Positions 37,666 to 41,012 of a stretch of DNA of 64,000 nt are shown here, piece after piece. Under the pieces are notes generated by a model. The model was given only the letters and a program-made list of their open reading frames with translations. It did not search any database and had not been told where the DNA came from. The translations under genes and the position numbers were made by a program. Numbering within the stretch: the stretch's first letter is position 1; every line of letters starts with the position of its first letter. Source of the DNA: Actinomycetes bacterium. Its GTDB lineage: Bacteria; Planctomycetota; Phycisphaerae; JAACET01. The stretch is taken from positions 124,001 to 188,000 of the forward strand of contig JAUXAG010000002.1 of NCBI GenBank assembly GCA_030614915.1. Direction: 5' to 3'.

Positions 37666-37732
37666 CTTGCGCTGATTGGGGTGCAGACATCAAATAGCGG
37701 GGGTTTTCTCAGGAAACGCTGAAAATAACAAG

Positions 37733-37803
37733 AGCGGGCGATGGGAATCGAACCCACATAGCCGGCTTGGAAGGCCGATGCTCTACCATTGAGCTACGCC
37801 CGC
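37733..37803 (-). tRNA. tRNA-Gly (anticodon UCC)
   Basis: A 71-nt cloverleaf on the minus strand: acceptor GCGGGCG pairs with CGCCCGC, D-stem GCTC/GAGC, anticodon arm TCGGC-CTTCCAA-GCCGG with anticodon TCC, T-loop TTCGATT, discriminator T. The 3' CCA is not encoded. It is the only complete tRNA in the window. Confidence 0.95.
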
Positions 37804-37996
37804 AGAGGCCAGATCAACAATTCCGCAGCTACAACGACATTGGAACACAGAGTTTACCCCCCGCTAGCATGCCGGTCAATGGCCTCCTGAGTTACTTGAG
37901 CGAGCCGCCTTTTTGGGGCGTTCGAAAGAGGAAATGCCCAAAGGACGGCTACCCAAAGGGTTTTACTTGGCGGGCGGCCTCTTTTTTTTATGCGCC
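37759..37996. repeat. Repeat copy A: tRNA-Gly 5' half, promoter and downstream stretch
   Basis: This copy is uninterrupted. Bases 37759-37948 match 39426-39615 at a constant offset of 1667, and 37947-37996 match 40962-41012. Copy A joins the two parts at a GACGG/GGCTACCC junction, which in the second copy is split by the XRE-Fic cassette. Confidence 0.85.
37851..37879 (-). promoter_or_regulatory. Promoter of tRNA-Gly
   Basis: On the minus strand TTGACC (37874-37879) and TAAACT (37851-37856) are separated by 17 bases, about 48 bases upstream of the mature tRNA 5' end. The same promoter is duplicated at 39518-39546. Confidence 0.7.
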
Positions 37997-38168: not shown

Positions 38169-38984
38169 CTACGGCCTCCGCCGCCTTATTATTAGACCCA
38201 AACTACCGGTCACCAGTAGGAACGCCAAGGTGGCTGGTTCGGGAACTAGGGCTCCGAGATCGGTAAGAGGCACTCCCTCCGTGGCTGCCGCGACTTGAGA
38301 TACTTCCGAAAAGTCTGTCGGGTTGAGCTCAAAAACTGTACCTGTGGCGTTTCTTGACCCGTAGAGTTTGCCGCTGTACCACGCAAGACCGTTGTATTTG
38401 GGACCGTCAAATTTGGTAAGAACGCCAGTACCAGAGTCCCATATATAGTTGTTCTTTGTGTCGTAGCCCGCATCAACGTTACCCGTGGTGATATAGAGCT
38501 TATCATCGGGGCTGCAGGAGATGTCTCCAAATTGAAACTGTAGTGTGTTACCGGAAATATCGTCAATCTTCGTCCGCGCACCTGTACCCTTGTCCACGCT
38601 GTATAAATCGTCGGTATTCTCGCCAACCAGTAGAAGATCACCGTCTATGTCCACCGTCGCATTGTGTTCCATGGAGTCTGAGCTGTTTATGAGAGTATGC
38701 GTACCGCTAACGGGATCCCATTTAGCGAAGCCCTGGACTCCTCCAGATCCTGGAAATTCCCAGTAATATAGATCCATTCCGTCAAAGGCTATGCCGGTGG
38801 TCGGAAACAGCGCTGTGGTACTTACGACAGTAACAGTACCTGCCACAGGGTCTATTTGATAGACGTTTGTATTTGATGAACTCATTCCGTACATGTTGTC
38901 CAATAAAGTTGCTTCTACACAGGTGTACCCGCTGACCAGACACATTAGCAGTGCAACAACTGTTGTCTTTGCTAGGCTTTTCAT
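38169..38984 (-). CDS. Exported protein with PEP-CTERM sorting tail
   Basis: A 271-residue secreted protein. A signal peptide (about residues 1-25, MKSLAKTTVVALLMCLVSGY) precedes a body with repeated short beta-like segments (VYQIDPVAGTVTVVST, KWDPVSGTHTLINSS, LYSVDKGTGARTKID), suggesting a beta-propeller. The C-terminus VPEPATLAFLLVTG, then a hydrophobic stretch and RRRRP, is a PEP-CTERM signal, processed by an exosortase and linked to exopolysaccharide. AAAGGA lies before the ATG. It lies between the two tRNA-Gly repeat copies. Function of the body is unknown. Confidence 0.85.
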   Translation of the reverse strand: MKSLAKTTVVALLMCLVSGYTCVEATLLDNMYGMSSSNTNVYQIDPVAGTVTVVSTTALFPTTGIAFDGMDLYYWEFPGSGGVQGFAKWDPVSGTHTLINSSDSMEHNATVDIDGDLLLVGENTDDLYSVDKGTGARTKIDDISGNTLQFQFGDISCSPDDKLYITTGNVDAGYDTKNNYIWDSGTGVLTKFDGPKYNGLAWYSGKLYGSRNATGTVFELNPTDFSEVSQVAAATEGVPLTDLGALVPEPATLAFLLVTGSLGLIIRRRRP

Positions 38985-39425: not shown

Positions 39426-39470
39426 TAGTCGGCTTGGAAGGCCGATGCTCTACCATTGAGCTACGCCCGC
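39426..39470 (-). pseudogene. 5' half of a duplicated tRNA-Gly
   Basis: The acceptor 5' strand, D-arm and complete anticodon arm (CTTCCAA loop, anticodon TCC) match the intact tRNA at 37733, but the sequence departs right after the anticodon stem, so T-arm and 3' acceptor strand are missing. The last stem base is A instead of G, which makes the stem fully paired. Confidence 0.9.
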
Positions 39471-39517
39471 GGAGGCCAGATCAACAATTCCGCGGTTACA
39501 ACGACATTGGAACACAG

Positions 39518-39546
39518 AGTTTACCCCCCGCTAGCATGCCGGTCAA
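39518..39546 (-). promoter_or_regulatory. Duplicated tRNA-Gly promoter
   Basis: TTGACC (39541-39546) and TAAACT (39518-39523) with 17-base spacing, identical to the tRNA-Gly promoter. It would transcribe the truncated tRNA into the region upstream of the PEP-CTERM gene. Confidence 0.6.
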
Positions 39547-39789
39547 TGGCCTGCTGAGTTACTCGAGCGAGCCGCCTTTTTAGACTGCCCAAAAGAGAAA
39601 ATTCCCAAAAGACGGTCGGAGTGGCGTTCCTTGTCGGTGGCTGGGAAAACGGTTGCCGCTCTGTCAAACCGCCAGCAGGGTGAGGGGGTATTTACCGGAC
39701 CTTTACTGGATTTAGGGCCAATATAGGGGCTGCTCCGTCTCTGATTTGTGTACACGGCCCTCGGGGTAAAACATAACGCTCTATTCTAT

Positions 39790-39874: not shown

Positions 39875-39903
39875 TTGCCGATAGCTCTGATGGTGGCTAT
39901 AAT
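39875..39903 (+). promoter_or_regulatory. Promoter of the XRE-Fic pair
   Basis: TTGCCG (39875-39880), 17 bases, TATAAT (39898-39903). The GGAGGTGAT ribosome binding site begins about 10 bases after. The XRE protein probably represses here, by analogy with other antitoxin regulators. Confidence 0.65.
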
Positions 39904-39926
39904 TGTGGTAGATGGAGGTGATTAAC

Positions 39927-40316
39927 ATGACCAGTATAGACTACATTTCCAGTAAGCTTGATGAGCGCAGGCGTACCTTGGGAATGCCACTAAACGAACT
40001 GAGCAGGCGCGCCAACGTGTCTCTCAGCACAGTCCGACGTGTCCTTGGTGGAGGACATGGGGCACGGCTCGAAGCGGTCACGGCGATAGGGGATGCGCTG
40101 GGAGTGCTATGCCTCAACTTCGACGACGCTCGACCACCAGAGAAAATGCGACAGCTTCAAGCAGCCCTGAAGGCAAGGAAGCTTGTAGGCATGGTTCAGG
40201 GCACTTCGGCCCTTGAGGGCCAAGCTGTCAGTGACCAGTACAAAAAGCTTATGATTGAAACCACAATCAACGAGTTGCTGTGTGGTCCCCGATCTCAATT
40301 ATGGGCGAGTATGTGA
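39927..40316 (+). CDS. XRE-family antitoxin with Fic-inhibitory motif (mobile mystery protein A-like)
   Basis: A 129-residue protein. The N-terminal helix-turn-helix (LNELSRRANVSLSTVRRVLG, about residues 23-42) would bind the operator. The C-terminal part VGMVQGTSALEGQAVS (about residues 87-102) contains TSALEG, a match to the (S/T)xxxE(G/N) motif by which class I antitoxins block the ATP site of Fic proteins. ATG at 39927 has GGAGGTGAT just upstream, better than the ATG at 39912. The end overlaps the fic gene. The pairing with a Fic protein fits the mobile mystery protein A/B families, assigned from memory of those families. Confidence 0.8.
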   Translation: MTSIDYISSKLDERRRTLGMPLNELSRRANVSLSTVRRVLGGGHGARLEAVTAIGDALGVLCLNFDDARPPEKMRQLQAALKARKLVGMVQGTSALEGQAVSDQYKKLMIETTINELLCGPRSQLWASM

Positions 40317-40954
40317 CAACGTGGAAAGCCATACCGGGGGAAACGCCGATAGACCCCTCTGGCCTAAGGCGCAGTTTAAGGGGGAGAGTTCATAACCGAG
40401 ACGAACTCATTCCCTATGAGGCCCAAAACATTAGAATTGTAATTAAGAAGTACTTGGCAAGCATGCCCAGTCGCAGCAAAGTACCGTTCACCGAGAAATG
40501 GGCCTTGAAAGTCCACAAGGAAATGTTCGGCAAGGTATGGACTTGGTCAGGAACATTTCGCACGTTCGATGTGACGATCGGAATACCCGCAGAAAAGGTA
40601 CAGACGGAGTTTCATAAACTCTTTGCTGACATTCATTGTTGGCAAGAATCGAATATGACTTTACTAGAGCAGGCAGCAACACTGCATTACAGGGCTGTCA
40701 AAATACATCCATTTCAAAACGGCAACGGTCGTTGGGCGCGGTTGTTGGCTAACATATGGCTACGACAACACGGCCATGCCTTGACCTACTGGCCCGAAAC
40801 AGGATTGGCTGGCGGTGAGAGTCCAATTCGGCAAGAATATATCGCAGCCCTCAAGGAGGCCAACAAGTATAACCTTAAACCCTTAATCGAGCTTCACGAG
40901 CGATACACCGCTGCCACTGTCAACCACGGCGAAACTGAATCTGACGAAACATGA
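40301..40954 (+). CDS. Fic-family protein (mobile mystery protein B-like)
   Basis: Fic proteins usually transfer AMP from ATP to target proteins. The 217-residue protein has the core motif HPFQNGNGRWAR (about residues 139-150), with the catalytic His and both Arg residues present. The acidic metal-binding residue of the canonical HPFx(D/E)GNGR is Asn, as in the mobile mystery B group. Upstream, GKVWTWSGTFRTFDVTIGI is the flap region of this group. ATG at 40301 overlaps the XRE gene by 16 bases; a GTG at 40280 is possible. With the neighbour it forms a likely toxin-antitoxin pair. Confidence 0.85.
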   Translation: MGEYVTTWKAIPGETPIDPSGLRRSLRGRVHNRDELIPYEAQNIRIVIKKYLASMPSRSKVPFTEKWALKVHKEMFGKVWTWSGTFRTFDVTIGIPAEKVQTEFHKLFADIHCWQESNMTLLEQAATLHYRAVKIHPFQNGNGRWARLLANIWLRQHGHALTYWPETGLAGGESPIRQEYIAALKEANKYNLKPLIELHERYTAATVNHGETESDET

Positions 40955-40959
40955 CAGAC

Positions 40960-41005
40960 GAGGCTACCCAAAGGGTTTTACTTGGCGGGCGGCCTCTTTT
41001 TTTTT
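40960..41005 (+). terminator. Possible terminator after the fic gene
   Basis: GAGGC (40960-40964) can pair with GCCTC (40992-40996) around a long loop, followed by nine T. Copy A at 37944-37990 has a similar structure and could end transcription from the polyprenyl synthase gene. Confidence 0.45.
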
Positions 41006-41012
41006 ATGCGCC
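40962..41012. repeat. Repeat copy C: continuation of copy B after the cassette
   Basis: Matches 37947-37996, the part of copy A that follows the GACGG junction. GACG is found on both outer edges of the cassette (39611-39614 and 40957-40960), possibly a short target duplication. Confidence 0.8.

What the first reader, a model, noticed from the sequence alone, without database searches (positions are those of the whole stretch)
39875..41012. XRE-Fic pair in which the DNA-binding partner carries the Fic-inhibitory motif
The 129-residue helix-turn-helix protein contains TSALEG, a match to (S/T)xxxE(G/N), just before the end of its coding region. The next gene is a Fic protein with HPFQNGNGRWAR. 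In class I Fic systems such as VbhA/VbhT the antitoxin supplies this motif. Here one protein seems to both repress transcription and block the Fic active site. The Asn in place of the acidic metal ligand raises the question whether AMP transfer is the reaction.
Basis: partly seen in the sequence, partly recalled or inferred. Interest (0 to 1): 0.7.

Follow-up and report, generated by a model that had tools for sequence, protein, structure and literature searches.

The report
Fic toxin with DNA-binding inhibitor partner
Two overlapping genes encode a protein-modifying Fic enzyme and a DNA-binding partner that carries an invariant glutamate where known Fic antitoxins carry the residue that plugs the active site, which suggests that the widespread, never-explained 'mobile mystery protein A/B' pairs are Fic toxin-antitoxin systems whose antitoxin could also act as the operon's repressor.

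Summary
ATG 39927-40316 encodes a 129-aa XRE-type HTH protein with T93-SAL-E97-G. The overlapping next gene (to 40954) encodes a Fic protein with HPFQNGNGRWAR. By itself the motif is weak: 10% of shuffles of the protein contain it. Conservation makes the case. In 92 distinct upstream partners of homologous Fic genes, from many phyla, the Glu is the most conserved residue (91 of 91 scorable). S/T at E-4 holds in 77 of 91, Leu at E-1 is 96% and Gln at E+2 is 95%. E+1 is not conserved, so the strict (S/T)xxxE(G/N) form holds in only 11 of 91. The Fic protein passes TIGR02613 (mobile mystery protein B), keeps H1, R9 and R12 (92 of 92), and has no inhibitory motif of its own. The HTH protein is TIGR02612-like, below cut-off. 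Best reading: a class I Fic toxin-antitoxin operon whose antitoxin is an XRE repressor with the inhibitory helix in its C-terminal half. Docking of Glu on R12 is inferred; AlphaFold2 read-through models of a homologue do not settle it. Asn at motif position 5 is family-wide (91 of 92) and occurs in CccR, a proven AMPylator, so it does not by itself argue against AMP transfer.

The parts
39875..39903 (+). sigma-70-like promoter TTGCCG-N17-TATAAT
   Evidence: 10 of 12 consensus matches; 4 promoter-like sites found in the region against 1.5 expected in shuffles
39927..40316 (+). XRE/HTH protein, 129 aa, proposed antitoxin and repressor; divergent TIGR02612-like
   Evidence: TIGR02612 27.8 bits, cut-off 122.6; HTH_31 27.3 bits, cut-off 27
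40203..40220 (+). TSALEG, residues 93-98; E97 is the invariant proposed inhibitory glutamate
   Evidence: sequence; conservation
40302..40304 (+). codon of W126, the second most conserved residue of the partner family (99%)
40313..40954 (+). Fic protein (mobile mystery protein B family); GTG start overlapping the HTH stop, alternative ATG at 40301
   Evidence: TIGR02613 128.4 bits, cut-off 124.4; PF02661 59.9 bits, cut-off 24
40709..40744 (+). Fic active-site motif HPFQNGNGRWAR (H1, N5, R9, R12)
   Evidence: sequence; columns
40960..41004 (+). intrinsic terminator of the operon (hairpin plus U-tract)
   Evidence: -17.7 kcal/mol, z -2.5; repeat D2

Best explanation
The locus is a two-gene class I-type Fic toxin-antitoxin operon. 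The first protein is an antitoxin made of an N-terminal XRE HTH domain (probably a dimeric repressor of the operon's own promoter) and a C-terminal helical part that carries the inhibitory glutamate E97. E97 is proposed to enter the active site of the co-translated Fic enzyme and bind R12 of HPFQNGNGRWAR, as VbhA E24 and EcFicA E28 do, which keeps the nucleotide in a non-productive pose. Loss of the antitoxin would both free the enzyme and derepress the operon. Shown here: gene order, overlap, signals, invariant Glu, invariant H1/R9/R12, and obligatory pairing with Fic. Inferred: Glu-R12 contact, inhibition, autorepression, AMPylation as the reaction, toxicity.
For: Of 99 Fic loci gathered by Fic sequence, 96 have the HTH partner directly upstream; in two of the other three no upstream ORF was recovered (the Fic match begins at or near the contig end) and in the third the Fic reading frame is broken. 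Glu is invariant (91 of 91) and is the top column by information, ahead of the HTH core itself. A partner-first search of 40 whole genomes gives full-length matches at E <= 3e-26, plus one fragment (the HTH-less partner locus in G414, E 1.3e-7), and then only generic XRE domains (E >= 1e-13). All four additional full-length matches, not chosen by Fic, are also followed by a Fic gene and keep L-E-x-Q. The one partner found in a genome without such a Fic (G295, locus L158) has lost the otherwise conserved Leu and terminal Trp (TSAPEAQ, RRLRAD). Fic H1, R9 and R12 are 92 of 92 and no (S/T)xxxE(G/N) is conserved inside the Fic protein, as expected for class I. Partner and Fic distance matrices agree (r 0.855; maximum of 2000 permutations 0.07). 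In both AlphaFold2 models of a natural in-frame homologue the long helix (68-92/93) ends just before L93-E94, as SRRLEG sits at a helix C-terminus in EcFicA (PMC5033356). Foldseek query TM rises from 0.41-0.44 (Fic core) to 0.50-0.52 when the match extends into the N-terminal part of FICD.
Against: E+1 (G/N) is not conserved and S/T at E-4 is His, Asn, Met or Ile in 14 of 91. Motif block pLDDT is 64 and no residue contacts were returned. Inter-protein covariation shows no enrichment of the motif region. Asn replaces the metal-binding acid, and in Fic-1 that residue is needed for AMPylation (PMC13327609). No operator was shown.
Confidence: 0.78

Rival explanations
1. The HTH protein is a conventional antitoxin or repressor that binds the Fic enzyme, but the invariant L-E-x-Q and Trp serve its own fold or dimerisation; the resemblance to the inhibitory motif is incidental.
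For: L at E-1, Q at E+2 and the C-terminal W are nearly as conserved as E, which fits a structural element; strict motif in only 11 of 91 and found in 10% of shuffles; docking unresolved.
Against: A charged residue as the single most conserved position, S/T at E-4 in 85%, helix end at the motif, absence of an inhibitory motif in the Fic protein, and obligatory Fic pairing.
Confidence: 0.15
2. The pair is chiefly a deAMPylase or another transferase: Asn at position 5 lowers AMP transfer, and the partner Glu activates water for AMP removal as in Fic-1-AntF. (This rival concerns the reaction and can hold together with the class I anatomy.)
For: Asn5 is fixed in the family (91 of 92). In Fic-1, E139 is needed for AMPylation but not deAMPylation, which needs the antitoxin Glu (PMC13327609). 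Other Fic reactions exist (PMC5033356).
Against: R9 and R12, needed in Fic-1 for AMPylation only, are invariant here. CccR with Asn5 AMPylates FtsZ (PMC9755527).
Confidence: 0.15
3. A decayed or silent locus with no active enzyme.
For: Only Fic in this genome; next to truncated repeats.
Against: Both ORFs intact, all catalytic residues and the Glu kept, promoter, Shine-Dalgarno and terminator present.
Confidence: 0.05

Closest known systems
TIGR02612/TIGR02613 mobile mystery proteins A and B
   Same: Same gene order; Fic passes the TIGR02613 cut-off; HTH partner aligns over profile positions 34-149 of 150. A TIGR02612 neighbour of a Fic gene in Geobacter has already been called an antitoxin (PMC3936711).
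   Different: HTH partner is far below the TIGR02612 cut-off (27.8 against 122.6) and lacks the N-terminal extension.
Class I FicTA: VbhA/VbhT, EcFicA/EcFicT, AntF/Fic-1
   Same: Antitoxin gene upstream, inhibitory-helix Glu on a separate protein, R12 kept; Fic model matches VbhT (TM by target 0.72) and EcFicT (0.67).
   Different: Known FicA proteins are short (AntF residues 5-47 are resolved in the complex) and no DNA-binding domain is mentioned in the papers read; here the antitoxin has an XRE domain, the E+1 G/N is not conserved, and Asn is at motif position 5.
CccR of Yersinia pseudotuberculosis and CbFic2 of Coxiella (class II Fic with HTH)
   Same: Combine Fic, inhibitory (S/T)xxxEG and HTH; CccR has Asn at position 5, AMPylates FtsZ and represses its own promoter (PMC9755527; PMC10628234).
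   Different: All in one polypeptide with the HTH at the C-terminus of the Fic protein; here HTH and inhibitory motif form a separate protein.
Phd/Doc
   Same: Antitoxin N-terminus binds the operon DNA and its helix completes or blocks a Fic-fold toxin (PMC2686095).
   Different: Doc and Phd are different families; no Phd fold or Doc motif here.

Membership tests
TIGR02613 mobile mystery protein B | score at or above curated cut-off 124.4 bits | tested here: met
   128.4 bits, profile positions 2-184 of 186
TIGR02612 mobile mystery protein A | score at or above curated cut-off 122.6 bits | tested here: not met
   27.8 bits over positions 34-149 of 150; related and in the same place, but not filed as a member
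Class I Fic toxin-antitoxin | inhibitory motif (S/T)xxxE(G/N) on a separate, adjacent protein | tested here: met
   TSALEG in the window; in the family Glu 91 of 91, S/TxxxE 77 of 91, strict form 11 of 91
Class I Fic toxin-antitoxin | no inhibitory motif in the Fic protein itself | tested here: met
   no conserved Glu column has both S/T at E-4 and G/N at E+1
[quoted passage not shown]
   HPFQNGNGRWAR: Asn at position 5; all other positions met; Asn in 91 of 92 of the family. So 'works like a class I pair' rather than a strict member
Class I Fic toxin-antitoxin | antitoxin Glu forms a salt bridge with R12 of the Fic motif | tested here: inconclusive
   single-chain read-through models; motif at a helix end, pLDDT 64, no contacts available
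Class I Fic toxin-antitoxin | Glu to Gly change releases enzyme activity | not testable with these tools
   bench experiment
DNA-binding, autoregulatory antitoxin (Phd-like behaviour) | HTH domain in the antitoxin | tested here: met
   HTH_31 27.3 bits at cut-off 27; family profile matches HipB, HigA and C2 repressor structures
DNA-binding, autoregulatory antitoxin (Phd-like behaviour) | binds an operator in its own promoter | not testable with these tools
   a 5-bp inverted repeat ATAGC-N10-GCTAT lies between -35 and -10 but is not beyond chance by a rough estimate

The most novel reading that the evidence does not exclude
The antitoxin couples DNA binding to Fic chemistry: bound to Fic it represses the operon and, through the same glutamate, turns the Asn5-type enzyme into a deAMPylase, so that transcription state and the modification state of the target are switched by one protein.
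Probability: 0.12. Interest if true: 0.75.

Novelty: new variant of a known kind. Interest (0 to 1): 0.5.

Why it matters
Mobile mystery proteins A and B are annotated on many plasmids (233 plasmid records match the Fic protein) and in many phyla, with no mechanism given in the open papers found. An invariant glutamate in the HTH partner gives a direct, single-residue test of what the pair does. It would extend class I Fic antitoxins from small, apparently non-DNA-binding proteins to XRE repressors, and would parallel, in split form, the Fic-HTH protein CccR and the Phd/Doc logic.

Tried and rejected
Motif by itself as evidence: rejected, 10% of shuffles contain it. MAFFT of fused, HTH-only and Fic-only homologues together misplaced the HTH rows (A2), so smaller balanced sets were used (A3, A8). 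Inter-protein mutual information on 88 pairs: the top pair is next to the motif (E-5 with Fic H1+29, z 6.7), but motif plus preceding helix make 23 of the top 100 pairs, as expected from their share of columns; phylogeny confounds, so not used. A frameshifted fusion of the window's own two proteins was not attempted because they are in different frames; the natural in-frame homologue L063 (one TAG between the genes, read as Gly) was folded instead. An operator search by eye found only a short inverted repeat, not significant. The partner family has no PDB match beyond its HTH domain among the hits shown. Phage-type integration at the tRNA was considered for the flanking repeats and not supported: the repeat carries the 5' half of the tRNA plus upstream DNA, and no integrase was seen in the neighbouring ORFs that were examined.

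Full report
What is there. The interval is a compact operon: promoter-like TTGCCG-N17-TATAAT at 39875-39903, a GGAGG Shine-Dalgarno and ATG 39927 for a 129-aa XRE-type HTH protein, a Fic gene that starts inside the last codons of the HTH gene (GTG 40313 in a GTGA overlap, or ATG 40301) and ends at 40954, and a terminator hairpin with a U-tract at about 40960-41004. It is the only Fic gene of this genome.

Families. The Fic protein scores 128.4 bits against TIGR02613 (mobile mystery protein B; cut-off 124.4). The HTH protein aligns over most of TIGR02612 (mobile mystery protein A) but at 27.8 bits against a cut-off of 122.6. The window pair thus belongs to a divergent branch of the A/B pairs. 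Nearby relatives are mostly planctomycete and Campylobacterota contigs. The Fic protein also resembles PADLOC's phage-defence candidate PDC-S04 (E 1e-20).

Is the motif meaningful? Not by itself: 10% of shuffles of the protein contain a match. I therefore collected homologues by the Fic sequence: 99 loci from genome, viral and plasmid collections. In 96 the HTH partner lies directly upstream; for two of the others no upstream ORF was recovered because the Fic match begins at or near the contig end, and in one the Fic frame is broken. In 92 distinct partners (effective number 74 at 70% identity; median pairwise identity 24%) the Glu is the most conserved column of the protein, 91 of 91. Then come the C-terminal Trp (99%), an Ala in the preceding helix (97%), Leu at E-1 (96%) and Gln at E+2 (95%). 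Position E-4 is Ser or Thr in 77 of 91. Position E+1 is variable, so the textbook form (S/T)xxxE(G/N) holds strictly in only 11 of 91. The family signature is (S/T)-(M/S)-x-L-E-x-Q.

A test from the other side. A profile of the partner family was run over 40 whole genomes in which relatives lie. Full-length matches have E <= 3e-26. Below them come one fragment (the HTH-less partner locus of G414, E 1.3e-7) and otherwise only generic XRE domains matching the HTH part (E >= 1e-13). Four of the full-length matches were new; all four are followed by a Fic gene and keep L-E-x-Q. One partner was found in a phylum relative without a Fic of this family (G295, locus L158). There the invariant Leu has become Pro and the terminal Trp region reads RRLRAD. 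This is a single case, but it is what relaxed selection after loss of the toxin would give.

The Fic side. H1, G6, N7, G8, R9 and R12 are 92 of 92; position 5 is Asn in 91 and Gly in one. No conserved Glu in the Fic protein has S/T at E-4 together with G/N at E+1, so the enzyme has no inhibitory motif of its own, as in class I. Fic and partner distance matrices correlate at r 0.855.

Structure. The tool folds single chains only. In L063 (Sulfurovum) the two genes are in the same frame with one TAG between them, so the natural DNA was translated with TAG as Gly and folded with homologues. Two runs gave mean pLDDT 79 and 86, pTM 0.71 and 0.74. The long helix 68-92/93 ends immediately before L93-E94. 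In EcFicA the motif likewise sits at the C-terminal end of a helix and protrudes into the active site (PMC5033356). The Fic half matches VbhT and FICD. Matches to FICD, whose inhibitory helix is N-terminal, rise in query TM from 0.41-0.44 (about 175-185 columns, Fic core) to 0.50-0.52 (272-294 columns), which I read as some 25-30 residues outside the Fic core superposing in the same frame. That is compatible with docking at the inhibitory-helix site but is indirect: the motif block has pLDDT 64 and no coordinates were available. Inter-protein covariation was inconclusive.

Mechanism, with status. Shown: operon layout, invariance of the Glu, invariance of H1/R9/R12, obligatory pairing. Inferred from class I systems, in which the antitoxin Glu bonds R2 of the motif and its loss releases activity (PMC3667792, PMC5033356): Glu97 blocks the Fic pocket. 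Inferred from the XRE domain: repression of the promoter. Unknown: target and nucleotide. Asn at position 5 is not a peculiarity of this copy. CccR carries HPFGNGNGRTVR, AMPylates FtsZ at Thr8, has its own SARIEG helix whose S59 and E63 bond R203, and represses its own promoter through an HTH domain (PMC9755527): a one-chain version of what is proposed here. Against simple AMPylation, Fic-1 needs its E139 at this position (PMC13327609); but it also needs R143 and R146, whose counterparts are invariant here.

What is known and what is new. Pairing of TIGR02612 with Fic and the word 'antitoxin' for it are already in print (PMC3936711), and TIGR02613 has been listed among defence cargo (PMC8649781). 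In the open papers searched I found no statement that the HTH partner carries the Fic-inhibitory glutamate. Subscription literature could not be read. I rate it a new variant of a known kind: a class I-like Fic antitoxin with an XRE domain.

Noticed in passing
window 37759-37948 and 39426-39615: A 190-bp direct repeat (92% identical) that contains the 5' 45 nt of the tRNA-Gly gene (37732-37803, minus strand) plus its upstream flank; the second copy lies just upstream of the HTH-Fic operon.
   Followed up: partly
window 37947-37989 and 40962-41004; G000:C35:118902-118942 (L165): A 43-bp repeat that is the terminator of the HTH-Fic operon. In the first copy it adjoins the 190-bp repeat directly, while in the second the HTH-Fic operon lies between the two, as if the operon had been inserted into a duplicate. 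The same element with GCGCCTATTGTGGCGCT behind it follows a HicB/HicA-like pair (Pfam hits below cut-off) on another contig.
   Followed up: partly
L124-L126 (IMG/VR contigs): An HTH-Fic pair of this family on three viral-collection contigs, just downstream of a long ORF that looks like a phage tail tape-measure protein (not tested).
   Followed up: no
L158 (G295:C75): An orphan partner protein without Fic, with decayed L-E-x-Q and Trp positions.
   Followed up: yes
L059 (Omnitrophota): The one family member with Gly instead of Asn at position 5 of the Fic motif (HPFNGGNGRWAR).
   Followed up: no
window 38169-38984, minus strand: A PEP-CTERM protein gene (hit just below the Pfam cut-off) between the tRNA-Gly gene and the truncated tRNA copy.
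   Followed up: no
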